DNA from: an uncultured Elusimicrobium sp.
Lineage (GTDB): Bacteria; Elusimicrobiota; Elusimicrobia; Elusimicrobiales; Elusimicrobiaceae
Reading direction: 5' to 3'
DNA length: 37,498 nt
NCBI GenBank assembly: GCA_947305555.1
Contig: CAMZDW010000007.1
Span: 1-37,498, forward strand
Shown here: piece after piece, positions 352 to 34,319 of the stretch
Numbering within the stretch: the first letter of the stretch is position 1
Layout: every line of letters starts with the position of its first letter
Notes under the pieces: generated by a model
The model's database searches: none
Told to the model about the DNA's origin: nothing
Seen by the model: only the letters and a program-made list of their open reading frames with translations
Position numbers and translations under genes: made by a program

Positions 352-2145
352 TTATTTGTAAAAACGGCTAAATGCCTTTAGCCCTTCTTTTAAAGTTTCC
401 GGGTCCGGGGGAGTTTGGATGGGCGTTAAACGATTGTCGTATCTATTTAAACTGCCGAATTTATTTAATACGGTAATATCGTCGCCGGAGCGTATTACTT
501 TTTCGGTGTGCCCGGCTAGTACGGTAAACGGGCGGGGAGTTGGGTCAAAAAGGGACCTTCCCAACGCATAATCCGCCGGCGGATTGGTGCAACCATACAC
601 TTCTTGCAACAGGGTGGGGACGACATCATGATGAGAAGTGCGGTAATCGTAAGATGCCGGCTTTGCACGCGAAGCATCATACAGAATAAAGGGAACTTTT
701 GTTTGGTAATCGGTAAAATTGCTGTTATGGCCCCAAAAATTTTGGTGCGAGTCATTAAGTTCCTGTCCGTGATCCCCGGTTAAAATAACCAGGGTATTGG
801 ATAACAAGTTTTGCTTTTCCAATGAAGTCAAAACCCGGTCAATCAGCGCGTCGTTAAAATAGACGGCATTTTTATATTGGTTTGCGTATGGGGTCGGATC
901 CGTCCGGTTATTCAGGAGCAAATAGTTCATGGGTTTAGCCGGCGTAAAACGGGCATATTCGGACGGATAGTCATACGCATGGGGGGCATCTAAAAAGATA
1001 AAACCGAAGAAAGGATGCTGTTGGTTGCGAGTCTGCAGGAATTTTTCAAAATCATCCACCGCGTTGATGTCCCGCGCCCAACTGGATTTGCCGGCCGAGC
1101 CCAAGCGCAAGTTAGAAATGGCGGAGAAAACATTGCGGTAAAACTCCGGGCTGGAAAGACTACTGCTGGCAAAAATGCCCGGCTCGTAACCGCGTTTTAA
1201 TGCCTCGGTAATAAGCACAGGGGATTCTTGCCGGGAGGTAAAATCATCCCAGTACGAGTGCGGCAGCGCGTAGAACAGGGAGAAAACTCCGCCCGTGGTG
1301 GAGTTCCCGCCGGATAAATGGTTGGTAAATACCTGCATGCCGGGGCGTTGGCTCCAGGCCGATAGTTTGGGCATTACCTGCGGGGTGAACGTGTCAGCCC
1401 GCCAAGAATCCAACATAATAATGAGTATATTTTTTAACGGTGCGGAAGGGGAACACGTAAGCGGATGCAAGGGATAATTTAAAAAGCCCTTATGCGGAAG
1501 TTGATAAGGCTTTTGAGAAGGGGTAAACCCCCATTTTTCTAACCGGCGGTTGGCTGAGAGCGGATAGGCCAAGGGCAACACCGCTTGTTGGGCTACCACG
1601 GAGGGAATCATTTTAAATTTTCCCCAGGCGTATGTGGCGTTATAGGCCATAAAAAATAGTGTCCATAAACCTAAGAGGATGAGAAGTGTTTTATTGGAAA
1701 AAGTGAATTTTTTGGATAAACGTACAAGGGTTATTTCCAGCGCAATAATCAGTAGGGCCAGAAACCCAATCAGTAGCCACATGCCCCAAGAAAAAATAAA
1801 AATTTCCCGCCCGGCCGGGCCGAAAAATAATTCCAGTAGCGACAGCCCAATGTGAAAACGATATTGTGCAAATACCACTATATCCGCTAGCAGGAAAAAG
1901 GAAAACAGTCCGCCCGCGGCCACGCAAGCCGTTGTTAGGGTGCGTTTTCCCACCCACTTAACAGGAAAGCACAGTAGCCCTATTAACCAAGCAAACATAA
2001 ATAAGTGGGCGGGAATAAACAGCAGGGTAAAGAGCAAGCCCCAGGGGTCGGTATAAAAACCGCTGACGTAAAAGTAACCCAAGGCGGCCAAACACCACAC
2101 CAGTCCTTGGAATAAGGAAAAGGAAAACAACTGTCGGGGGGTCAT
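352..2145 (-). CDS. YejM/PbgA-like inner-membrane sulfatase-fold protein
   Basis: 597 residues, the same length and layout as enterobacterial YejM/PbgA (LapC): five predicted membrane helices in residues 1-172, a linker, then a periplasmic alkaline-phosphatase/sulfatase-fold domain from about 238. Similarity to YejM includes QAVLPLAYPLSANRRLEKWG after the last helix, QVMPKLSAWS and SGGNSTTGGVFSLFYALPHS. In enterobacteria YejM senses LPS in the periplasmic leaflet and controls LpxC stability through LapB and FtsH; that role is family knowledge and not shown here. Unlike E. coli YejM, which has lost metal ligands, this protein keeps MLDSWRAD (Asp246), NSTT (Thr283/284), GDHGQE (Asp458, His459) and WGHNSNF (His473), so it may be a catalytically active phosphoglycerol or phosphoethanolamine transferase or hydrolase. 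The ATG at 2145 has no Shine-Dalgarno and sits 6 bases after a -10. Confidence 0.85.
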   Translation of the reverse strand: MTPRQLFSFSLFQGLVWCLAALGYFYVSGFYTDPWGLLFTLLFIPAHLFMFAWLIGLLCFPVKWVGKRTLTTACVAAGGLFSFFLLADIVVFAQYRFHIGLSLLELFFGPAGREIFIFSWGMWLLIGFLALLIIALEITLVRLSKKFTFSNKTLLILLGLWTLFFMAYNATYAWGKFKMIPSVVAQQAVLPLAYPLSANRRLEKWGFTPSQKPYQLPHKGFLNYPLHPLTCSPSAPLKNILIIMLDSWRADTFTPQVMPKLSAWSQRPGMQVFTNHLSGGNSTTGGVFSLFYALPHSYWDDFTSRQESPVLITEALKRGYEPGIFASSSLSSPEFYRNVFSAISNLRLGSAGKSSWARDINAVDDFEKFLQTRNQQHPFFGFIFLDAPHAYDYPSEYARFTPAKPMNYLLLNNRTDPTPYANQYKNAVYFNDALIDRVLTSLEKQNLLSNTLVILTGDHGQELNDSHQNFWGHNSNFTDYQTKVPFILYDASRAKPASYDYRTSHHDVVPTLLQEVYGCTNPPADYALGRSLFDPTPRPFTVLAGHTEKVIRSGDDITVLNKFGSLNRYDNRLTPIQTPPDPETLKEGLKAFSRFYK

Positions 2146-2257: not shown

Positions 2258-3901
2258 ATGGCTAAAAATGACCTCACTACCCGCAACCTCATGCTGGATA
2301 GTTTGAAGCAATATGCGAAAAACCGGATTTCGTTTAACTTCATTCGCGAACATGATGCTAAAAACGAAATTCCGTTAGACATTTTGAAAGAGATGTACGA
2401 CCATAATATTTTGGGCGTACATTTGTTGTTAATCCCCGAAGAATACGGCGGTTTAGGCGGCCAAACGACCGAAATTTACCGCATCTGTGAGCAACTCGCC
2501 CGCATTGACCTGGGCATTGCTACTGGCGTATTTGCTACTTTTTTAGGTAGTGACCCATTGAATGTGGGCGGTACCCCGGAACAAAAAGCCAAATGGTTTA
2601 AGAAAATTGCGCACGAAAATAAACTCGTGGCTTATGGTGCTACCGAAGCCGATGCGGGCAGTGACCTTGTCTCTCTGCGCACACGTGCCGAACACGTAGT
2701 CAAAGATGGAAAAGTGGTTGGTTATAAAATTACCGGTAGCAAAATGTGGATTTCTAACGGTGGTGTGGCCGATATCTATACTGTTTTAGCCCTGGCACCC
2801 GGCGGCCCTTCTTGGTTTATTGTAGAGAAAGGAACGCCCGGTTTTACGCAGGATGCCCACGAAGATAAACACGGGATCCGCTTGTCTAACACGGCCGGGT
2901 TGTCCTTCGATGAAGTATATGTGCCGGCGGAAAATTTAATTGGGCTTAAAGAAGGCCAAGGTTTCTTGCAAGCGCAGGCTGTATTTGGCTACACGCGACT
3001 TATGGTGGCGGCGTTTGGGTTAGGTGGTGGAGAAGAAGCCGTTGAAACTGCGCTGGAATATGCCGGGCAACGTATTCAAGCCGGTGGTCCGCTTTCACAA
3101 AAACAAGGGTTTATGCTTAAACTCATTACCCCGCATTACGTGCGTTTTGAAGCGGCGCGTGCATACATTGACTGGACGGCTAAACAACTGGAAGTTAATA
3201 ATCACGGGCTTGCTACCGAAGGCGCTATTGCCAAATTGTACGCTACTGAGTCGGGTAACAAAGCGGCCGAAGATGCCATCCAAGCGATGGGCGGATTTGG
3301 CTATACCAAAGAATTTGCGGTTGAAAAAATTAAACGTGATGTCAAAATTACTTGCATCTACGAAGGTACCAGCGAAGTGTTGGAAATGACCATTTTCCGC
3401 GGTCGCTGGCAAGAACATTTAAAATCACGCGGTCAATACTACCTCAGTCAAGCGGCTGAATTTGATACGATTCATGCCCAAAATCCCAACGTTGGTGCCG
3501 ATAGTGTGGCGTTAGGTTTCCGGGCGTTGGCGCGTGTGTTGGAGGATTGCCGCGCTAATAAACTTACGCGTCACCAATATGTTACGTTTATGTTAGGCGA
3601 CCTAATCAGTGAAATGGAAGTGGCTGCGGTGTTTACGCGCGAATGTGCCAACAAACGTGTAACTGAAGGTAGCCGCTTTGATATTGCTACTTTATCCACC
3701 ATGGCCCGTGTCAATGCACGCCAAAGTGCATTTAAAACGGCCAGCGAAGGCTTGCGCCTAATCTTGGGTACTTGCCCGACGATCAATACTGCCGAGGTCA
3801 GCCAGGCCGTCAACTTGGTTGGCATTGAAGACAAAATGCGCGGACTTATCGACGATATGGATACGGTTTCCGCTAAGTTACGTGAAATTTTTAAGAAATA
3901 G
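2258..3901 (+). CDS. Acyl-CoA dehydrogenase family flavoprotein
   Basis: FAD enzyme that oxidises acyl-CoA or reduces enoyl-CoA, exchanging electrons with the Etf encoded just downstream. From MAKNDLTTRN it has 547 residues: N-terminal helical domain, central beta domain with YGATEADAGSDLVSLRT (127-142, flavin contact), C-terminal helical domain with IQAMGGFGYT (341-350) and the catalytic base in IYEGTSEV (Glu369, the SCAD/MCAD position). About 150 further residues after the catalytic motif resemble the C-terminal extension of long ACADs (FadE of Bacillus, VLCAD/ACAD9 type) and are longer than the roughly 380-residue short-chain enzymes. An in-frame start at 2180 would add 26 hydrophobic residues but spans the promoter, so 2258 with its ribosome binding site is chosen. 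Substrate cannot be read from sequence; no thiolase, crotonase or hydroxyacyl-CoA dehydrogenase lies nearby. Confidence 0.93.
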   Translation: MAKNDLTTRNLMLDSLKQYAKNRISFNFIREHDAKNEIPLDILKEMYDHNILGVHLLLIPEEYGGLGGQTTEIYRICEQLARIDLGIATGVFATFLGSDPLNVGGTPEQKAKWFKKIAHENKLVAYGATEADAGSDLVSLRTRAEHVVKDGKVVGYKITGSKMWISNGGVADIYTVLALAPGGPSWFIVEKGTPGFTQDAHEDKHGIRLSNTAGLSFDEVYVPAENLIGLKEGQGFLQAQAVFGYTRLMVAAFGLGGGEEAVETALEYAGQRIQAGGPLSQKQGFMLKLITPHYVRFEAARAYIDWTAKQLEVNNHGLATEGAIAKLYATESGNKAAEDAIQAMGGFGYTKEFAVEKIKRDVKITCIYEGTSEVLEMTIFRGRWQEHLKSRGQYYLSQAAEFDTIHAQNPNVGADSVALGFRALARVLEDCRANKLTRHQYVTFMLGDLISEMEVAAVFTRECANKRVTEGSRFDIATLSTMARVNARQSAFKTASEGLRLILGTCPTINTAEVSQAVNLVGIEDKMRGLIDDMDTVSAKLREIFKK

Positions 3902-3910
3902 GATAAACGC

Positions 3911-4699
3911 ATGAATATTATTGTATGTATTAAACAAGTTCCCGATTCTACCCAAGTTAAAGTAGATCCCAAAACCGGTACACTCATTCGTGCGGGTGTG
4001 CCCAGCATTTTAAATCCGTACGACCATTTTGCCTTGGAACGTGCGTTAGATATTAAAGCCAAAACCGGGGCGAAGGTTACCCTGCTTTCTATGGGGCCCA
4101 ATCAAGCCACCGCAGTGCTTCGCTTGGGGTTAGCGTTAGGTGCTGATGAAGGGGTACTCCTTAGCGATCGCGCTTTTGCCGGATCGGATACATGGGCCAC
4201 ATCCTATGCACTCGCTACTGCGATTAAAAAAATCGGCGGATATGATTTAATTTTATGCGGACAGATGGCCATTGACGGCGATACGGCGCAAACCGGTCCC
4301 GGTATTGCCTATCATTTAAACATTCCGCAAATTACATTCTGCGAATCTATTGATGCCAGCGGCAATCAGGTAGTTGTCAAAAAACTGATTGAAGGCGGTC
4401 ATCAAATTTTGGAAGCGGATTTGCCGGTACTTGTTACGATGACAATGCCGCCCGATTACGTGGCAAAATATCCATCTTTTATGGCGGCACACAAGGCACA
4501 AGACAAAACGATTCATACGTGGACAGCTGCCGATATTGGTGCGGACCCAAGCAAACTGGGTTTAAACGGTTCGCCCACGCGCGTGGACCGCATTTTCCCG
4601 CCGCCGGCACGTGCCAAAGGGGAGATGTTCTCCGGTTCGGCCGTAGAACTGGCTAATAAATTTGTTGAAATTTTGAAAAAGGAGAGTGTGCTCAAATGA
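3911..4699 (+). CDS. etfB: Electron transfer flavoprotein beta subunit
   Basis: 262 residues, full length for EtfB. It starts MNIIVCIKQVPDST, standard for the family, and carries the nucleotide-binding signature CGQMAIDGDTAQTGPG (116-131). In ordinary Etf the beta subunit binds AMP, while in bifurcating Etfs it binds a second FAD that takes electrons from NADH. Which of these applies cannot be settled by eye, but pairing with a ferredoxin-fused EtfA favours the bifurcating type. It lies nine bases after the dehydrogenase stop with AGGAT as ribosome binding site, and its stop overlaps the next start (ATGA at 4696), so the subunits are translationally coupled. Confidence 0.93.
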   Translation: MNIIVCIKQVPDSTQVKVDPKTGTLIRAGVPSILNPYDHFALERALDIKAKTGAKVTLLSMGPNQATAVLRLGLALGADEGVLLSDRAFAGSDTWATSYALATAIKKIGGYDLILCGQMAIDGDTAQTGPGIAYHLNIPQITFCESIDASGNQVVVKKLIEGGHQILEADLPVLVTMTMPPDYVAKYPSFMAAHKAQDKTIHTWTAADIGADPSKLGLNGSPTRVDRIFPPPARAKGEMFSGSAVELANKFVEILKKESVLK

Positions 4700-5880
4700 T
4701 TCAAATTAGTGAAAAATGCGTTGGGTGCGGCAAATGTACCACCGTGTGTCCGTTTGGGGCGCTTTCTTTAGTCAATCGCAAGGCAGTGGCTTCAGCCGCG
4801 TGCACCATGTGCGGTGCGTGTGTCAGTCAATGCCCGGTCAAAGCACTGTCTTTGCCACAAACCGGCGCGGCGAAGAAGGATTTATCCGCCTATAAAGGTG
4901 TATGGGTATTTGTGGAAATTGCCAATGACGGCCGCACGCAAAAAGTGCGCCCGGTCGGGTTTGAGCTTTTATCCAAAGGGCGAGAACTGGCTACCCAACT
5001 GGGTGAAGAATTATGCGCTGTAGTGATTGGGTACGGCACACAACCGTTCTTTGCGGAACTTTCCCAGTATGGGACCGATAAAATTTACTCAGTAGATGGG
5101 CCGGCTTACGCACAATACAATACGATTGCATATGCCAATGCGCTTGTTACGCTTATTGAAAAATATAAACCAAGTGTGGTGCTCTATCCTTCTACTTACA
5201 TTGGGCGTGATTTATCGCCGCGGATTTCCTCGCAATTATTTGTGGGGTTGACGGCAGATTGCACGGGTCTTTCCGTAAAAGAGGGGAATTTAATTCAAAC
5301 ACGTCCGGCCTTTGGCGGTAACATTATGGCGGATATTAAATGCCCGGATTACCGGCCGCAAATGTCCACTGTGCGCCCCAATGTATTTAAAAAAGCAGTT
5401 ACTACTCCGGGGCGAATGGCAGCAGTTGTTACGGAATCCATTCCGGTTCCGCCGCAAGCAGCCAAAGTGCGTGTGGTAAATACACACATGGATCCGCCGG
5501 CCAGCGGTATGAAATTAGATGAAGCGGAAGTGGTTATAGCCGGTGGGCGCGGAATGAAAGATAAAGCTGGGTTTGACCTATTAGAAGATTTAGCCAAAGA
5601 GTTAGGCGGCACCGTAGGTGCTTCTCGCGCGGCGATTGACTTGGGCCTTAAAGACAAAGACCAGCAAATCGGTCAAAGCGGGGTAACCGTTTCTGCTAAA
5701 CTGTATGTGGCGTGCGGAATCTCCGGCGCAGTACAGCACGTAGTGGGGATGGAACACAGCGATGTAATTATTGGCATTAATAAAGATGCCAATGCACCCA
5801 TATTCAATGTGTGCAAGTACGGTTTTGTGGGAGATGCAAGCCAAATCCTGCCCCGTATTTTGGAACAGCTGAAGAAATAA
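4696..5880 (+). CDS. etfA: Electron transfer flavoprotein alpha subunit with N-terminal 2[4Fe-4S] ferredoxin domain
   Basis: 394 residues. Residues 1-60 are a bacterial-type two-cluster ferredoxin: Cys8, 11, 14, 18-Pro and Cys36, 39, 42, 46-Pro. The rest is EtfA: an N-terminal Rossmann-like part (about 65-260), then the FAD domain with AGGRGM (about 278), GQSGVTV and LYVACGISGAVQH, and the C-terminal NKDANAPIFNVCKYGFVGD. This fusion is the architecture of CarE in the caffeyl-CoA reductase/Etf complex of Acetobacterium woodii and of related bifurcating lactate dehydrogenase/Etf complexes. Inference: it forms a complex with the EtfB and acyl-CoA dehydrogenase next to it, coupling NADH, ferredoxin and an acyl-CoA substrate. 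GGAG at 4681-4684 is the ribosome binding site. Confidence 0.93.
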   Translation: MIQISEKCVGCGKCTTVCPFGALSLVNRKAVASAACTMCGACVSQCPVKALSLPQTGAAKKDLSAYKGVWVFVEIANDGRTQKVRPVGFELLSKGRELATQLGEELCAVVIGYGTQPFFAELSQYGTDKIYSVDGPAYAQYNTIAYANALVTLIEKYKPSVVLYPSTYIGRDLSPRISSQLFVGLTADCTGLSVKEGNLIQTRPAFGGNIMADIKCPDYRPQMSTVRPNVFKKAVTTPGRMAAVVTESIPVPPQAAKVRVVNTHMDPPASGMKLDEAEVVIAGGRGMKDKAGFDLLEDLAKELGGTVGASRAAIDLGLKDKDQQIGQSGVTVSAKLYVACGISGAVQHVVGMEHSDVIIGINKDANAPIFNVCKYGFVGDASQILPRILEQLKK

Positions 5881-5917
5881 TTAATAACCACTATTTATCA
5901 GCTATATAAATGTATAC

Positions 5918-5955
5918 AACGGCACAAACAAAAAGGTTTGTGCCGTTGTTATTTT
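5918..5955 (+). terminator. Intrinsic terminator after the Etf operon
   Basis: A 12-base-pair perfect stem (AACGGCACAAAC with GTTTGTGCCGTT, loop AAAAAG) followed by TGTTATTTT. It lies 38 bases after the etfA stop and between convergent genes, so it may also stop transcription of the minus-strand gene at 5975. Confidence 0.8.
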
Positions 5956-6374: not shown

Positions 6375-8084
6375 ATGTCTTTATTTTCAAAACTTTTTAA
6401 AATGTTTCTGGCTGTAGTGCTCATGCCGTTTGTTCCCATGATGTTACTATTGGCCTACTACCAGGTACATTTAAAAGATAATATCTTGGAAACGCATGCT
6501 AATTTAGCACAGATGGTTTCCGCTTCTATCAACCAGCATATTGAAGATTTGGGTTGGCGTTTGGCGTTTGCCCAAAATGTAGAAGAATATTTACAGCAGA
6601 AGAAAAATCCACAGTCTATTTTAGAAGACGCCTTGATGGCAAACCCTGATTTTTTGATGTTAGCTGTTTTATCTCCCCAGGGGAAAGAATTATATCGGGC
6701 CGGCGATAAACAAGTTTTAAGCCAAATAGAATCGTTAGATTTAAGTGCAGATGTTACTTTGTCGCAATTGGCCAAAGAACGGCGCATTTCTGTTAGCCGT
6801 TTTGAAATTATTTCCGGTCGGCCGATCAGCGAATTTATTTATCCCATGCCCAACGGAGATTTTTTGTATGGTATTTTGAGCTTTTTTAGTTTCTTGGCGC
6901 GTGTACAGGAACAACGAATCGGCAGTACCGGCCATATTTATATTGTGGACCAAGAAGGTCAAACGTATGCCAGCGATTATCTATACAAACCAGCATTTGA
7001 TACAGCGGATCTTCAACAAGCATTTGCCAGCAAATCGCACCTGATTAAAAAATTAAAAACGCCGCAAGAAGTGTACGTGGGAGCTTATGCCTCTACTCCG
7101 ATTTTAGGTGCGTATGTAGCGGTGTTACAACGCAAAAGTGAAGCTTATCGAAGTATTTATTATACCAATGTTATTTTAGCTTTATTTTTGCTGACAATAG
7201 CCACACTGTCTTATTTTGGAGCTCTTACATTTGCAGAACAGTTAGGTAAACCCATCGAAGCTCTCTCCCATGCGGCTAAAGAAGTGAGTCAAGGAAATTT
7301 TGATGAAAAAATTGACCCAGAAATCGGCTGGGGGGAATTTAAGGGACTCATTAATTCCTTTAACCAAATGACCTCTGATTTAAAAGACTACCAAGTGCTC
7401 CAATTAGAGCAGCAAGTCAGCGAGATGAAAGAACAGGTTTTCCGTGCGGTAGCTCATGATTTGCGTGCACCGCTGCTAGGCTTGCAAGGATATATCTACA
7501 TTTTGCAAAGTGGAAAAGTGTCTAAGGAAGAGGAAAAAAATTATTTAGAACTGATGAGCCAAGCGGCCCGGAATCTGTCTTCACTTTTAGAAGATGTGCT
7601 GGATGTATCCCGGGTACAGGCAGGGATGCGTACCCCGCAAAAACAGGCGGTAGATTTGCGGGCCCTGGTTCAACACGTGGTGGAAACGTTGGCCCCAACG
7701 GCTGCTGAGAAAAAATTATCCTTGGAAGTGAATGTACCTTCGCTTCATGTTCCTGCGGACCTGAAACTACTGCAGCGTGTAATTACAAATTTAGTGTCTA
7801 ATGCAATTAAATTTACAGAAAAAGGTTTTGTGCGGGTTTGTGCAAATGAAGAAGAAAAATGCTACTGTATAACGGTGGAAGACAGTGGTATTGGAATGAC
7901 AGCGCAAGAAGTAAAGGGGTTATTCCAAAAATTTCACCAGCTTCATCCGGAACAACCAGGGTATGGTCTGGGATTGTTTATCAGCCGCCAGATTATAGAA
8001 GCGCACGGGGGCACGTTGCAGGCCAGTAGTACGCCTGGGAAGGGAAGTGTATTTACAATCCAGCTCCCTAAGGAGGAAAAATGA
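6375..8084 (+). CDS. Membrane sensor histidine kinase (orphan)
   Basis: 569 residues. Helix at about 8-29, periplasmic sensor region about 30-260 (Cache-like by layout, with a GHIYIVDQEGQTYAS stretch at 186-200 typical of dCache membrane-proximal lobes), second helix 263-285, HAMP 286-340, HisKA with phospho-acceptor His361 in VAHDLRAPLLG, and HATPase_c with N-box LVSNAIKFTEKG, G1 DSGIGM and G2 GYGLGLFISR. The kinase is intact, yet no response regulator is encoded anywhere in the window, so the partner must be elsewhere. Its stop overlaps the start of the next gene (ATGA at 8081). The ligand cannot be inferred. Confidence 0.92.
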   Translation: MSLFSKLFKMFLAVVLMPFVPMMLLLAYYQVHLKDNILETHANLAQMVSASINQHIEDLGWRLAFAQNVEEYLQQKKNPQSILEDALMANPDFLMLAVLSPQGKELYRAGDKQVLSQIESLDLSADVTLSQLAKERRISVSRFEIISGRPISEFIYPMPNGDFLYGILSFFSFLARVQEQRIGSTGHIYIVDQEGQTYASDYLYKPAFDTADLQQAFASKSHLIKKLKTPQEVYVGAYASTPILGAYVAVLQRKSEAYRSIYYTNVILALFLLTIATLSYFGALTFAEQLGKPIEALSHAAKEVSQGNFDEKIDPEIGWGEFKGLINSFNQMTSDLKDYQVLQLEQQVSEMKEQVFRAVAHDLRAPLLGLQGYIYILQSGKVSKEEEKNYLELMSQAARNLSSLLEDVLDVSRVQAGMRTPQKQAVDLRALVQHVVETLAPTAAEKKLSLEVNVPSLHVPADLKLLQRVITNLVSNAIKFTEKGFVRVCANEEEKCYCITVEDSGIGMTAQEVKGLFQKFHQLHPEQPGYGLGLFISRQIIEAHGGTLQASSTPGKGSVFTIQLPKEEK

Positions 8085-8794
8085 TTGTATTTTGGCGTTT
8101 GTTTTTAGCCTATTTTTTAACCGATTTTGTGTTTTATTTTGAACCGGCAGATAAATTGCGCACAGACAGCCGTGTCAAACGGATGTTGTGCCGGGGAAGT
8201 GTGTTCCTCGTATGGGCGCTTATTTTGTGTTATGGATATTTGACTATGCCTTGGCCGTTTTTGGACATGGTGGATTTGCCCGGCTGGATGTGTATTATTC
8301 TATTTACGCTTTTTTATGTGTTTACAGAGGGATTTTTTGATTTTGGCGGAAAAATTAAACATGGGTATTTTCTGTCATTTGCGTTAAAAACGTTTGTTAA
8401 TTTATTATTCCTGTTTTTGTGTGTGCCGTTTCATGTACTGTATGAAACCGGTAATTTTTTTGCGGAGCCCTGGATTATTTTCTGTGCAGGTTTAGTATTG
8501 GCAACGCGTGTATCGGGCTGGGTTATTTTTACCATCGAACAAGACCGCTACGGACGGGATTACCCCACATTTGATGAACGGTGGCTACTCATGATGGTGC
8601 GCGCGATTTTCTTTCTCGTCATGATGTTGCCCGGTTGGCGTTGGGTGGTGCTACTGTTGGTATGGGGAGTGGCTTGTATGTACGCGCGGAAAATCCGCTT
8701 GATGGATGTATCCAACTTGGCCTTTTATGGGGGTATATTTGCGGCTATTTTCTTTGGGTTTTTAGTGCGGCTTCGCTTTTATTTGGTGTGGTAA
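8081..8794 (+). CDS. Polytopic membrane protein, possibly DUF3307-like
   Basis: 237 residues with about six hydrophobic helices and basic connecting loops. The N-terminus RLFLAYFLTDFVFYFEPADK resembles the start of DUF3307 proteins (AHLLxDFxxQ), but the usual His is replaced by Tyr, so the assignment is weak. It follows the kinase with a four-base overlap and precedes the exonuclease by one base, so it belongs to the same transcript. It could be an accessory of the sensor kinase; nothing in the sequence proves that. Confidence 0.75.
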   Translation: MIVFWRLFLAYFLTDFVFYFEPADKLRTDSRVKRMLCRGSVFLVWALILCYGYLTMPWPFLDMVDLPGWMCIILFTLFYVFTEGFFDFGGKIKHGYFLSFALKTFVNLLFLFLCVPFHVLYETGNFFAEPWIIFCAGLVLATRVSGWVIFTIEQDRYGRDYPTFDERWLLMMVRAIFFLVMMLPGWRWVVLLLVWGVACMYARKIRLMDVSNLAFYGGIFAAIFFGFLVRLRFYLVW

Positions 8795-11345: not shown

Positions 11346-11373
11346 ATATGTAGATGTTAAGGTGGGAGTATAT

Positions 11374-12450
11374 ATGCAACGAATTATTTTAATAGTAGGA
11401 ATACTTGCCGTAAGTTGTTCTTTTGGTTTTGCCCAAAACCCTAGATCAGTTCAGAAAGCTGTCGAGACTATCGCTGCAAAGCCGGGGCCTCTTTCCGCGG
11501 CCGAAATCAGACAGATTGAACGGAATATCATGCGTTTGACCAAGCCCGTTTATCAATCCCCCCAGATGTATCCCACCGTACTTACACCAGTACAAGTTTT
11601 GAGAGAAGATCCGGAAGCTTTGCTGTTTCACAATAGCCGCCAGTACGTCCTAACCGGTTTAAAAGATTTGTTGAAGAAAGATGCGGCTCTTTTAGAACTT
11701 GTCACTCAAATTGAAAAAAAACCACCAACCAATTATATAACTGCTCATGACGTTCGAAGAGAGTTGTGGAAGAGATTGGGGCAAGCCTCTTTCCAGGGAA
11801 ATTACGCCCTGGAAAGTGCGTTAGCGCAACAAATTATGCCCAATACCGTTTTGCCGAATGATTTGGTTTATGTCCCATTCACTCATAGTAGTTCCGTGGC
11901 CTACGTGGGACCTCGCCAGTGGGTACTGGGTACCCCGGGGAACCTGCCGGAATGGGTTGGTATGCTGGATACACAAGAGGCGGTAGGTGTAATTATTTTA
12001 GTCAAGCGGGATGGAAAAGTGATTCAGTCTGGGTTAACGGTTATAGATGCAAAGACCGATTTAAAGCGTTCGGCTGATTTTTTCTATTCCGCTACTTATG
12101 TGTCCACGACGGACCAAACAGAGGTGTATGTGTTATCCCAAAATTCCCCGTGGGAACAAGTGCAGCGAGTGGTACAATTTGTAAGGGGCATCAGCCCGGA
12201 TGAAACCCTCTATTACATGGATTTGCATAGTCCGGGGCGCGCGGCCTTAAATACACAGACGGGTAAAATTAGTACGGATTTTGGATGGGAAGATATGGCA
12301 CCCAGTCAGCAGCTGGAAAAAGACTTTGATTCGACCGGGAAACGTTGGAATCACCCTATCTCTCACTGGGATTTGCGCCCTGGGGAGATTATGCAGCAGT
12401 GGTATCCGCAACGTTTTGGTGTTCAATCGCCCGTTCCGCCAGAACGATAA
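11374..12450 (+). CDS. Exported protein of unknown function
   Basis: 358 residues from the ATG at 11374, which has AAGGTGGGAG (11359-11368) at proper distance; a GTG at 11362 in frame lies inside that site and is rejected. A clear signal peptide, MQRIILIVGILAVSCSFGFA, with cleavage before QNPRS. The mature part is alpha-helical at first (about 25-150), then mixed, with WVLGTPGNLPEWVGML, a beta-rich part (GVIILVKRDGKVIQSG) and a Trp/Pro-rich tail. No membrane helix beyond the signal, no lipobox and no motif I recognise. Monocistronic by its own promoter and terminator. Probably periplasmic or surface-released. Confidence 0.85.
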   Translation: MQRIILIVGILAVSCSFGFAQNPRSVQKAVETIAAKPGPLSAAEIRQIERNIMRLTKPVYQSPQMYPTVLTPVQVLREDPEALLFHNSRQYVLTGLKDLLKKDAALLELVTQIEKKPPTNYITAHDVRRELWKRLGQASFQGNYALESALAQQIMPNTVLPNDLVYVPFTHSSSVAYVGPRQWVLGTPGNLPEWVGMLDTQEAVGVIILVKRDGKVIQSGLTVIDAKTDLKRSADFFYSATYVSTTDQTEVYVLSQNSPWEQVQRVVQFVRGISPDETLYYMDLHSPGRAALNTQTGKISTDFGWEDMAPSQQLEKDFDSTGKRWNHPISHWDLRPGEIMQQWYPQRFGVQSPVPPER

Positions 12451-14629: not shown

Positions 14630-16552
14630 ATGTATAAATTGGGATTATTTTTACTTTTTTGGAGTTGGGCTGCCTGGAAACGTGGAGACTGGGTACGTTC
14701 CAAACAAACTCTGTTTATTTTGGGAATGTTTCTAGGGATCCCACTCGTTATTCGAATATTATTATTGATTTGCTACCCTTCTTTGTTCAGTTCGTTGCAA
14801 CTGTCAGATATAGGGCTGGGTATCCGGCAAGGCTTTGTAGGGGACCTATCAATGCTAGCGCTGTGGGGAGGAGGGAGTTTATTATTAGTAAATTTCCCCA
14901 TTTCTTCCGTTTCTTATCGTAAATGGATAGGCGTTTTCACGATATTTATTTGGGACTGTTACGTATGGATTCTACTGGCAGATCTCATCTATTTTCGCTA
15001 TATTGGAAGGCATACCGGTCCAGATATTTTTAATTTCTTTTTATCGGCCACGCTCGTGCTAAAAACAGCATTTTATTCATATAAGTGGGTGCCTATTTTG
15101 GGAACGATTTGGTTTGCAGGTAGCTTCTATGTCGCGTGGAAGTATATGCAACGGGAAAAACAACTGCACCGTGGTTCAGTATTTTATGAAGTATTTTGTA
15201 TAGGAATAATTATTTTCTTTATTTATTTTTCCGAGAGAGGATATTTTTTTAGCAAGGATCCTTTGGTTCCACAGCAAACGTATGTGGCGGGACGTGCTCA
15301 AGGACATTTTGCGCTCAATGGCGTATTTAGCATGGTGTATAATTTAATGCCCGCGCACTACATTCGTTCCACAAAGAATAAATTGTCACATCCTAGTTTG
15401 AATGAGTTAAGTGAGGAGAAAAGTTTGAGTCTGGCTCAGCAATTGGTTATCTCGTCCAATGAACAAGTTCCGGATCCAAAATTCCCTCTGCAGCGCGTGC
15501 GGCATAAATTTACTTACCCACAAACTAAGAAACATTTAATTATCTTGGCTTTTGAAAGTTTGGATTACCGCCAGATTGATTTTTGGGCAGGCACTAATTA
15601 CGGGGCGACACCGCATTTGGATTCTCTATTAAAACAAGGTCAATTATTTGATTATTTTTATTCTTGTTCTGAAAATTCTAGTTTATTAGGGGTTGGAACC
15701 GTCATGTCCGGTTTGTGTTGGGTGTCGGGAATCCCTTACTTTTCCCGTGGGCTGGAGCAAACAAATCAGCGAGGATTGGGCCAGTTATTCACATCGGCAG
15801 GTTATCGGTCTGTTTTTGTGCGTGCTTGTGAAGATTCCACTATGTATATAGGGCCTTTGAGCCGCTTGATGGGGTATGATTCTTTTGGAAGGGAGCGCAT
15901 TAAAAAGGAATACGGCAAAAAACAAGTATACGATGCGGAAGCCTTGGAAGTGTTAGCTGACCAATTTAAAAAAAGTAAGCAGCCTTTTTCCGGTTTTTTC
16001 TTTTCAACAGCTACGCACGAACCGTTTGATTTATGGACGCCAAAAGAGTTAAATCCGGTAATAGAGAAAAAATTCAAAAATGATCCCTATCTCCGCGCGC
16101 TGGCTTATACTGATGAAGCGGTAGGCCAATTTCTCCGGACTTTACAGGAAAACGGATTATACGAAGATACCGTGTTTATTTTAGTAGGCGATCATCCTCA
16201 GCGGGAAATAAACCATGCAGGTCAAGAAAAATACCACGTTCCTTTTGCGTTAATTGCACCGGGGATTATTCCTGCCAAACGAAGTCAAACGATAGGCGGA
16301 CAAGCAGATGTGCTTCCTACGATTATAGATTTATTTCATATTTCAGAGCCATATGCGGCATTAGGCACCAGCTTGTTGGAAGATACCTCCAAGGAATGGG
16401 CTTATGTTACGCAAGAAGAGGGGAATGATTTTTCATTCATTACTCCCTTGGGACTCATTCCGGAAAATCAGCCGTCTTCTTATCATCAGCAGATGGTAGG
16501 GTTAAATACAGCGGCCTACACAATTCTACACAAGAATGCATGGGTGCAATAG
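14630..16552 (+). CDS. LtaS/OpgB-like sulfatase-fold membrane transferase
   Basis: 640 residues: about five to six membrane helices in 1-205, a linker, and an extracytoplasmic alkaline-phosphatase-fold domain from about 300. Family members (LtaS, OpgB/MdoB) move phosphoglycerol from phosphatidylglycerol to a glycan or lipid acceptor. Visible metal-site residues are Glu309 (ILAFESLDYR) and Asp521-His522 (LVGDHPQRE). The nucleophile, Thr in LtaS (FYS-x4-T), aligns here with Ser350 or Ser351 in YSCSENSSLLG, an unusual change. THEPFDLW (462-469) is the usual histidine motif. It has its own promoter and stands between rplI and dnaB. Acceptor unknown; a periplasmic glycan or surface polymer is the natural guess. 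Confidence 0.85.
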   Translation: MYKLGLFLLFWSWAAWKRGDWVRSKQTLFILGMFLGIPLVIRILLLICYPSLFSSLQLSDIGLGIRQGFVGDLSMLALWGGGSLLLVNFPISSVSYRKWIGVFTIFIWDCYVWILLADLIYFRYIGRHTGPDIFNFFLSATLVLKTAFYSYKWVPILGTIWFAGSFYVAWKYMQREKQLHRGSVFYEVFCIGIIIFFIYFSERGYFFSKDPLVPQQTYVAGRAQGHFALNGVFSMVYNLMPAHYIRSTKNKLSHPSLNELSEEKSLSLAQQLVISSNEQVPDPKFPLQRVRHKFTYPQTKKHLIILAFESLDYRQIDFWAGTNYGATPHLDSLLKQGQLFDYFYSCSENSSLLGVGTVMSGLCWVSGIPYFSRGLEQTNQRGLGQLFTSAGYRSVFVRACEDSTMYIGPLSRLMGYDSFGRERIKKEYGKKQVYDAEALEVLADQFKKSKQPFSGFFFSTATHEPFDLWTPKELNPVIEKKFKNDPYLRALAYTDEAVGQFLRTLQENGLYEDTVFILVGDHPQREINHAGQEKYHVPFALIAPGIIPAKRSQTIGGQADVLPTIIDLFHISEPYAALGTSLLEDTSKEWAYVTQEEGNDFSFITPLGLIPENQPSSYHQQMVGLNTAAYTILHKNAWVQ

Positions 16553-32810: not shown

Positions 32811-34319
32811 ATGAAAATTTCTCGCATCTTAACGGTGGCCTCGGTTCTGGTTTGCACGGTACTGGGTATACACATGTTTATGGCTCGTTTTTATCGATTG
32901 GATGTGGGTCTACAATATGATGAACTCTACTCCATCGCTACAGCCTTACCCACGCTTCCGTTTTCGGTTATTTGGCACGACATGCTACTGCGTGATGTAA
33001 ACTTACCTCTCTTTAATATACTCTTTTATGGTTGGAATCATTTTTTTCCGCCCACGCCTTTTTATGGACATTTATTCAGCGCTATTTTAGGTGCCTTAGC
33101 CGTTATTGCGGGGGGAGTGCTGGCGCCCAAAAGTTGGCCACTGCTTAAACGCTTCTTTTTCGTAGTACTTATGAGCGGTAGTTTTATTTTGGTGGCTTAC
33201 GGTTCCAACATGCGTTCCTATTCGCTTTCTGTGTTGTTGGCAACAAGTTTTACCTTATTAGCGTTGCGAATTATAGATCATTTTGAACAGGCCACGCGTC
33301 CTTCTGTTTTCTTATGGCTCAGTTTTTTGGGGACCGGTTTATTAGGGGCGTACAGTCATTATTTTTGTGCAGCAGTATTTTTTATTGCGGCATTGGTTGT
33401 GTTTTTGTATGCCTGTTATTATCGTCGTGGGCGTGCGTGGAGTTTTTGGGGAACGGCCCTTGTTTTTTTACTTTGGATTGCTTGGCCTATTCATGTAGTT
33501 GCCTTGATGAAGGGGGGCTCTCTTTTGGCAGAGGGGGACATGGGTTCCTGGTGGTATCAAACGCCTTTTTTAGCATCCTCCTGGACAATTATTGTTTTTT
33601 TGTTAGGGTATCCAAAACTTGTTGCCGGGTTATTGTGGGTAGCGGTGGTGGCGGCTGTTTCGTTAGGATTTACCTACAAAAGCCGAATATTTAGGCAGGC
33701 AGATATTATGCTCCCGTTGGCTCAAGTAATTTTATTATGTGCGGTGTTGGCGGTAGTTTCTTCTTGGTTTAATTTATGGATGGACCGTTATTTTTTACCT
33801 GTTTTGCCTTCTATTCTCATTTTACTGGCGGGGATATTTTATCATTTGCAAGCTCGGCATAAAATATTTATTTTATTAGTGCCGACGTTGTTGGCGTTTT
33901 GGTTTCACTTGGGGATAGAGACGGTATACAGCCGTCCGCCTGAGTATATGGGGATGAATAACGCCTTTCGTTATTTGGAAAAGAATCACATTACTCGGGT
34001 CTTGCTGGATAGTGTACATCTGACCTATCCTCCTCGTGCGGTGGAAGAGATGTTATCGTATTATCAACATCCCGGTCAAGAGTTGGAATTGATTCCGTTA
34101 AATGAAGAGAATGTATCGCTGGCGTGGAACAGCGAGCCGAAGGTGCCGATTTTAATTATATTGTGTTCCCGAGTATATATTTTAGATGTGATGAGCCGGT
34201 TGCGTGCAGAGCCGGATTCCAGAGCGGTTGCATTTGCGGGGGATACATGTTTGTATACCGCACGTTACTTAAAACGGAATGATTCAGCAGAGGGAGCTCA
34301 AGGGGAAGATAAAAAATGA
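32811..34319 (+). CDS. GT-C fold membrane glycosyltransferase (PMT/ArnT-like)
   Basis: 502 residues with about 11-12 helices in the first 360 and a soluble C-terminal part. The first external loop has LQYDELYSIATA (about 35-45), the acidic pair typical of GT-C enzymes that use polyprenyl-phosphate sugars, and LLRDVNLPLFNILFYGWNHF resembles the next conserved loop of GT39/GT83-like proteins. Such enzymes glycosylate proteins or lipids on the periplasmic side. It overlaps the next glycosyltransferase by ATGA, and both lie between two prepilin genes, so pilin glycosylation is a reasonable inference. Ribosome binding site AGGAGAG. Confidence 0.82.
   Translation: MKISRILTVASVLVCTVLGIHMFMARFYRLDVGLQYDELYSIATALPTLPFSVIWHDMLLRDVNLPLFNILFYGWNHFFPPTPFYGHLFSAILGALAVIAGGVLAPKSWPLLKRFFFVVLMSGSFILVAYGSNMRSYSLSVLLATSFTLLALRIIDHFEQATRPSVFLWLSFLGTGLLGAYSHYFCAAVFFIAALVVFLYACYYRRGRAWSFWGTALVFLLWIAWPIHVVALMKGGSLLAEGDMGSWWYQTPFLASSWTIIVFLLGYPKLVAGLLWVAVVAAVSLGFTYKSRIFRQADIMLPLAQVILLCAVLAVVSSWFNLWMDRYFLPVLPSILILLAGIFYHLQARHKIFILLVPTLLAFWFHLGIETVYSRPPEYMGMNNAFRYLEKNHITRVLLDSVHLTYPPRAVEEMLSYYQHPGQELELIPLNEENVSLAWNSEPKVPILIILCSRVYILDVMSRLRAEPDSRAVAFAGDTCLYTARYLKRNDSAEGAQGEDKK

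What the first reader, a model, noticed from the sequence alone, without database searches (positions are those of the whole stretch)
2258..5880. Acyl-CoA dehydrogenase, EtfB and ferredoxin-fused EtfA: a candidate bifurcating complex with no beta-oxidation partners
Seen: EtfA carries eight Cys of two [4Fe-4S] clusters, EtfB is coupled by ATGA, and the dehydrogenase keeps catalytic Glu369. Known: the same fusion occurs in the caffeyl-CoA reductase/Etf complex (CarCDE) of Acetobacterium woodii, which couples NADH oxidation to ferredoxin reduction. Inference: this organism may use an unknown enoyl-CoA as electron sink. The long dehydrogenase with about 150 extra C-terminal residues differs from the short CarC/Bcd type, so the complex may be a distinct variant.
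Basis: partly seen in the sequence, partly recalled or inferred. Interest (0 to 1): 0.7.

Follow-up and report, generated by a model that had tools for sequence, protein, structure and literature searches.

The report
Bifurcating flavoprotein complex with long dehydrogenase
Rumen and gut bacteria of the phylum Elusimicrobiota carry a three-gene unit that looks like an enzyme which uses NADH to saturate an unknown CoA-bound acid and, in the same act, makes the high-energy electron carrier reduced ferredoxin, built from a known engine joined to an unusual long dehydrogenase.

Summary
Window 2258-5880 encodes an acyl-CoA dehydrogenase (ACAD, 547 aa, Glu369), EtfB and an EtfA with an eight-Cys 2[4Fe-4S] domain, followed by a terminator. 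The genome is a rumen/gut Elusimicrobiota MAG (Candidatus Avelusimicrobium group). EtfB and EtfA carry every residue motif shown by mutagenesis to be needed for bifurcation in the A. woodii Ldh-EtfAB complex. The long ACAD tail is not a new domain: an AlphaFold model (pLDDT 88) matches VLCAD/ACAD9-type dehydrogenases over its whole length. The EtfBA of these long ACADs form their own clade (100/100), apart from CarDE and other Elusimicrobiota Etfs. True thiolase and crotonase are missing from the genus. At least two near-complete relatives (99%) lack the complex, so it is dispensable. Best reading: a lineage-specific NADH- and ferredoxin-dependent enoyl-CoA reductase; substrate unknown. New variant of a known kind. 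Side finding: a second ACAD-EtfB-EtfA operon in which, in 14 genomes including this one, EtfB and the EtfA base are lost and the EtfA FAD-shuttle domain is fused to the dehydrogenase.

The parts
2258..3901 (+). Long acyl-CoA dehydrogenase (547 aa): ACAD core 1-381 with Glu369, plus VLCAD/ACAD9-type C-terminal helical domain ~390-546
3911..4699 (+). EtfB (262 aa), bifurcating class: RAFAG 87-91, DGDTAQTGP 122-130, SPT 221-223
   Evidence: motif functions PMC9232219, PMC12630350
4696..5880 (+). EtfA (394 aa) with N-terminal 2[4Fe-4S] ferredoxin domain (Cys 8,11,14,18,36,39,42,46), Arg203, and alpha-FAD domain
4696..4699 (+). ATGA stop/start overlap of EtfB and EtfA
   Evidence: 47 of 47 loci
5916..5949 (+). 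Intrinsic terminator-like hairpin (14-bp stem, T-rich tail) closing the three-gene unit

Best explanation
The three genes encode a flavin-based electron-bifurcating enoyl-CoA reductase complex. Proposed mechanism: NADH gives a hydride to the FAD of EtfB. One electron goes through the two [4Fe-4S] clusters of the EtfA ferredoxin domain to free ferredoxin. The other goes to the FAD on the mobile domain II of EtfA, which swings to the dehydrogenase FAD. After two rounds the dehydrogenase reduces a 2-enoyl-CoA to the acyl-CoA. Reduced ferredoxin can feed the [FeFe] hydrogenases found in the genome. Shown here: gene content, motif completeness, fold of the dehydrogenase, conservation, and absence of EtfQO and of a thiolase/crotonase pathway. 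Inferred: binding of the second FAD, the direction of flow, the enoyl-CoA substrate, and that the VLCAD-type domain makes the assembly a 2:2:2 complex rather than the four-fold complexes of CarCDE and Bcd-EtfAB.
For: All EtfB motifs whose mutation destroys bifurcation in Ldh-EtfAB (DGDTAQVGP, RXFXG, SPT; PMC9232219) and EtfA Arg203 are present in the window. DGDTAQTGP and SPT are kept in 52/52 and RAFAG in 45/52 EtfBs of the genus; the Fd domain with eight or more Cys and RPAFGG in 55/55 EtfAs. EtfA best hit is CarE. EtfB is far closer to bifurcating than to canonical Etfs. EtfQO 0/23. Two [FeFe] hydrogenases in the own genome and in each of the seven other genus genomes tested. A long-ACAD match in 61/61 relatives searched, though in a few only fragments or weaker hits. 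ACAD fold confident.
Against: No biochemistry. Close relatives of bifurcating Etfs can be non-bifurcating (Clostridium propionicum acryloyl-CoA reductase, PMC9232219). Sister-family EtfBs with the same long ACAD carry Met or Ala at the NAD-site Arg87. Two relatives of another genus have EtfA without the Fd domain (G097, G099). No gene that would make an enoyl-CoA lies next to the unit, and none was found by the thiolase, crotonase or HGD-D searches.
Confidence: 0.66

Rival explanations
1. Same complex run in the confurcating direction: an acyl-CoA (for example from fatty acids activated by the FadD-like ligase, or from 2-oxoacid oxidation) is oxidised to enoyl-CoA, with reduced ferredoxin helping to reduce NAD+, as in the Ldh-EtfAB complex.
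For: A long-chain-type CoA ligase (PRK06187-like, 466 bits, just under its cut-off of 476) is in the genome, and AMP-binding proteins are in all 22 genomes tested. The VLCAD-type fold belongs to enzymes that oxidise long-chain acyl-CoA. E. minutum is said to make acyl-CoA from amino acids (PMC11257099).
Against: No crotonase or thiolase to use the enoyl-CoA. It would consume low-potential electrons in a fermenter. No ligase or lyase gene is linked to the unit.
Confidence: 0.17
2. Non-bifurcating NADH-dependent enoyl-CoA reductase of the Clostridium propionicum acryloyl-CoA reductase type; the Fe-S domain is ornamental or regulatory.
For: NCBIfam's AcrA and AcrC models are the best hits of EtfA and ACAD, though far below their cut-offs; AcrB is second for EtfB. 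PMC9232219 notes non-bifurcating Etfs closely related to bifurcating ones.
Against: That paper ties non-bifurcation there to an insertion that may block ferredoxin; the window EtfB has the length of the bifurcating ones (262 aa) and an intact eight-Cys Fd domain is kept in 55/55 EtfAs.
Confidence: 0.1
3. Respiratory Etf that passes electrons from acyl-CoA oxidation to a quinone through EtfQO.
For: The ACAD is of the VLCAD/ACAD9 kind used in respiratory beta-oxidation.
Against: EtfQO 0/23 genomes; Gly123 rather than the bulky residue of canonical EtfB (PMC12630350); canonical Etfs score lowest.
Confidence: 0.02
4. The complex is the enoyl-thioester reductase of fatty-acid synthesis, replacing FabI/FabK.
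For: No FabK over the cut-off in 23 genomes and only 21-35% matches to E. coli FabI, below 57 bits. A gene block whose sizes fit plsX-fabG-acpP is present.
Against: G073 (99% complete) lacks the EtfA and ACAD as well as FabI and FabK, so another reductase must exist there or fatty acids are taken up. FabV and FabL were not searched.
Confidence: 0.05

Closest known systems
CarCDE, caffeyl-CoA reductase/Etf complex of Acetobacterium woodii (6FAH)
   Same: EtfA with N-terminal 2[4Fe-4S] domain aligned over its whole length (E=1e-112); EtfB motifs; Arg203; dehydrogenase-EtfB-EtfA gene order
   Different: CarC is a short 379-aa ACAD; the window ACAD has a VLCAD/ACAD9-type C-terminal domain; EtfBA in a separate 100/100 clade; no adjacent CoA transferase or ligase
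Bcd-EtfAB, bifurcating butyryl-CoA dehydrogenase (5OL2, 4KPU/4L1F)
   Same: Bifurcating EtfB motifs, ACAD core, catalytic Glu
   Different: No Fd domain there; short Bcd; the butyrate pathway enzymes are missing here
Long ACADs: 3OWA (Bacillus anthracis), 2Z1Q, VLCAD, ACAD9
   Same: Whole-length fold including the C-terminal helical domain (TM-score by target up to 0.79)
   Different: To my knowledge these work with canonical Etf or in complex I assembly, not with bifurcating Fd-Etf; 22-25% identity; the tail has no sequence-level match
LctBCD, Ldh-EtfAB of A. woodii (7QH2)
   Same: EtfB motifs and a Fe-S domain on EtfA
   Different: Lactate dehydrogenase instead of ACAD; one cluster instead of two
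Short-ACAD EtfBA units of other Elusimicrobiota (Endomicrobia-type genome G081, sister-family genomes G037, G043)
   Same: Same gene order, Fd-EtfA, bifurcating motifs
   Different: Short ACAD (385-400 aa, 37-42% identity) and a different Etf clade

Membership tests
Bifurcating EtfAB | DGDTAQVGP beta-FAD motif with Gly123 | tested here: met
   DGDTAQTGP at 122-130; 52/52 genus EtfBs
Bifurcating EtfAB | RXFXG NAD site and SPT at the EtfB arm anchor | tested here: met
   RAFAG 87-91, SPT 221-223; 45/52 and 52/52 in the genus; Arg87 lost in sister-family G037, G053, G057
Bifurcating EtfAB | EtfA Arg at N5 of beta-FAD (CarE Arg203 / Ldh-EtfA Arg205) | tested here: met
   Arg203, alignment; RPAFGG in 55/55
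Bifurcating EtfAB | Two FAD per EtfAB and coupled ferredoxin reduction | not testable with these tools
   needs purified protein
CarCDE | EtfA with N-terminal eight-Cys 2[4Fe-4S] domain | tested here: met
CarCDE | short (~380 aa) dehydrogenase CarC | tested here: not met
   547 aa with VLCAD/ACAD9-type domain
CarCDE | Etf subunits group with CarDE | tested here: not met
   separate 100/100 clade; CarDE pairs with C. difficile Etf 95/92
CarCDE | linked carA/carB (CoA transferase/ligase) | tested here: not met
   none among the neighbours annotated by family
CarCDE | acts on caffeyl-CoA | not testable with these tools
   assay needed
VLCAD/ACAD9-type long ACAD | C-terminal helical domain after the ACAD core | tested here: met
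   AF2 pLDDT 88, pTM 0.90; Foldseek 2z1q, 3owa, 7s7g, 8phe over >540 columns
VLCAD/ACAD9-type long ACAD | sequence-level homology of that domain | tested here: inconclusive
   profile search stops at about residue 403
Canonical Etf feeding EtfQO | EtfQO in the genome | tested here: not met
   0/23 genomes
Butyrate / beta-oxidation Bcd-EtfAB | thiolase and crotonase in the genome | tested here: not met
   absent in the genus; both present in G167, G171 and some sister-family genomes

The most novel reading that the evidence does not exclude
In these small genomes the enoyl-CoA/acyl-CoA pair is not a fermentation intermediate but a catalytic redox shuttle: the window complex saturates it with NADH while making reduced ferredoxin, and the second dehydrogenase, fused to an EtfA shuttle domain, re-oxidises it toward another acceptor (O2, as in the Fusobacterium Bcd-EtfA-rubredoxin protein, or an envelope-linked reaction suggested by its operon). 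Alternatively the complex is the missing enoyl reductase of fatty-acid synthesis.
Probability: 0.08. Interest if true: 0.85.

Novelty: new variant of a known kind. Interest (0 to 1): 0.45.

Why it matters
Electron bifurcation sets the energy budget of anaerobes. A bifurcating Etf with its own ferredoxin domain, paired lineage-wide with a VLCAD-type dehydrogenase, would widen the range of bifurcating partners and predict a different complex stoichiometry. It would also give poorly known rumen/gut Elusimicrobiota a ferredoxin source and an electron sink. Because thiolase and crotonase are missing, identifying the substrate would expose an unknown part of their metabolism.

Tried and rejected
Respiratory Etf: rejected (EtfQO 0/23; motifs). 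A substrate gene conserved beside the unit: not found; neighbours in relatives are FTCD, TPR protein, sigma factor, histidine kinase, phosphoglucose isomerase. 2-Hydroxyacyl-CoA dehydratase (PF06050) as source of enoyl-CoA: 0/22. FabI/FabK: none convincing, but not decisive because FabV and FabL were not searched and G073 lacks all of them. My first trees of fused versus separate ACAD2 used wrongly oriented loci and were redone. The E. minutum genome paper and one presumed Elusimicrobia comparative paper were not in the library.
Full report
What is there. The window (contig C7 of a 1.36-Mb, 80%-complete MAG) holds at 2258-5880 three adjacent genes on the + strand: a 547-aa acyl-CoA dehydrogenase, EtfB (262 aa) and EtfA (394 aa), the last two joined by ATGA. 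A GGAG lies upstream of ATG 2258 and a 14-bp-stem terminator at 5916-5949 closes the unit. Related contigs are titled Elusimicrobium, Elusimicrobiaceae and Candidatus Avelusimicrobium, mostly from rumen and gut.

EtfB and EtfA. By sequence the best solved relatives are all bifurcating: EtfB against 5OL2, CarD, A. fermentans EtfB, LctB and 7KOE scores 249 to 196 bits, while canonical Etfs score at most 86.5. EtfA aligns with CarE over its whole length including the ferredoxin domain (E=1e-112). Mutagenesis of the A. woodii Ldh-EtfAB complex showed that DGDTAQVGP (beta-FAD), RXFXG (NAD) and SPT (arm anchor) of EtfB and Arg205 of EtfA are needed for bifurcation or confurcation (PMC9232219), and Gly123 separates bifurcating from canonical EtfB (PMC12630350). 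The window has DGDTAQTGP, RAFAG, SPT and Arg203. Over 62 contigs of the genus and its near relatives, DGDTAQTGP and SPT occur in 52 of 52 EtfBs found, RAFAG in 45 of 52, and the Fd domain with RPAFGG in 55 of 55 EtfAs found. EtfQO was absent from 23 genomes of the phylum, while control genomes rang.

The dehydrogenase. Residues 1-381 are a normal ACAD with Glu369 in IYEGT. Residues ~390-546 match no Pfam family, and the PDB profile search stops at about residue 403. An AlphaFold model on 26 sequences (pLDDT 88, pTM 0.90) matches long ACADs over its whole length: 3OWA, 2Z1Q, VLCAD and ACAD9. The tail is thus the VLCAD/ACAD9-type domain. From general knowledge, in VLCAD this domain occupies the place of the second dimer of tetrameric ACADs; I therefore predict a 2:2:2 complex (inference).

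Family tree and distribution. EtfBA units that go with a long ACAD form one clade (100/100) containing the window's genus, its family and the sister family. CarDE, C. difficile Etf and the Elusimicrobiota Etfs next to short ACADs lie outside it; deeper branching is unresolved. A long-ACAD match was found in 61 of 61 relatives searched, mostly at 63-97% identity, with only fragments or weaker hits in a few. It is not universal: G073 (99% complete) gave no EtfA match, and G073 and G235 (both 99%) gave no ACAD match at all, so the complex is dispensable. Variation: sister-family EtfBs have Met or Ala at Arg87, and G097 and G099 have EtfA without the Fd domain.

Partners. Crotonase gives no match in the genus, and thiolase only weak partial hits that fit ketosynthases; both are present in the larger relatives G167 and G171. 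HGD-D dehydratase is absent. A long-chain-type CoA ligase is present, as are [FeFe] hydrogenases, two in the own genome. No enoyl-CoA-producing gene sits beside the unit.

Second system. The genome's other ACAD (G000:C10:26049-27743) is fused to an EtfA FAD domain (PF00766, E=1.6e-34). In most relatives of the genus it is instead the third gene of an operon: SpoIID/LytB-domain protein, glycosyltransferase, ACAD2, EtfB2, EtfA2. In 14 genomes EtfB2 and the EtfA2 base are gone from that place and ACAD2 runs in frame into the shuttle domain. On the ACAD2 tree fused and separate forms need five changes, and one clade of fused forms is rejected (AU p=0.0004), although the linkers look alike. EtfB2 has DSDTGHIGP, in the genus CPT, and usually Met87, so it is probably not bifurcating. 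In the own genome the window's EtfBA is then the only Etf base found. A comparable fusion with rubredoxin is known in Fusobacterium nucleatum, where with a flavodiiron protein it oxidises butyryl-CoA with O2 (PMC12288474); no rubredoxin domain was found here.

Mechanism and confidence. That the Etf is of the bifurcating class is well supported (about 0.85). That it works as an NADH/ferredoxin-linked enoyl-CoA reductase in vivo is the best reading (0.66). The substrate cannot be named; the fold and the CoA ligase point weakly to longer acyl chains. Confurcation, a non-bifurcating reductase and a role in fatty-acid synthesis remain as rivals with the evidence listed.

Verdict. A real, conserved and well-formed complex; a new variant of a known kind. 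The mechanism is known; the pairing, clade and missing pathway are the interest.

Noticed in passing
L130:6050-7744 (G000:C10:26049-27743); other fused loci L156-L168: Second ACAD fused in frame to the EtfA FAD-shuttle domain, with EtfB2 and the EtfA2 base lost from the operon, in 14 genomes of the genus; fused and separate forms are intermixed on the ACAD2 tree (AU p=0.0004 against one clade). No rubredoxin domain found, unlike the Fusobacterium fusion.
   Followed up: partly
L195, L196, L197, L198, L199, L200 and others: Conserved operon SpoIID/LytB-domain protein - GT4 glycosyltransferase - ACAD2 - EtfB2 - EtfA2; in genus g12 (G063, G067, G070) ACAD2 stands there without any Etf. A link of an acyl-CoA dehydrogenase with envelope-type genes is unexplained.
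   Followed up: partly
EtfB2 of L195, L196, L198, L199, L200, L203: EtfB2 has DSDTGHIGP instead of DGDTAQVGP, in the genus CPT instead of SPT, and mostly Met at the NAD-site Arg: a probable non-bifurcating Etf derived from a bifurcating one.
   Followed up: partly
L139, L141, L143 (G037, G053, G057): Sister-family EtfBs beside the same long ACAD have Met or Ala at NAD-site Arg87, so the electron donor may differ.
   Followed up: no
23 genomes: No convincing FabI or FabK in most Elusimicrobiota tested, including the E. minutum-like single-contig genome G090; the enoyl-ACP reductase is unidentified (FabV, FabL not searched).
   Followed up: partly
window 352-2145 (-) and 14630-16552 (+): Two sulfatase-family proteins; the first is LapC/YejM/PbgA-like (DUF3413 + Sulfatase) and divergent from the ACAD gene.
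   Followed up: no
window 8081-8794, 11362-12450 and 32811-34319 (+): Proteins of 237, 362 and 502 aa without a Pfam match at the thresholds used.
   Followed up: no
L228 (G000:C29:5000-20000), L233: Cluster with FabF-like ketosynthases, an AMP-binding-like protein and large proteins, resembling a secondary-lipid or aryl-polyene-type cluster.
   Followed up: no
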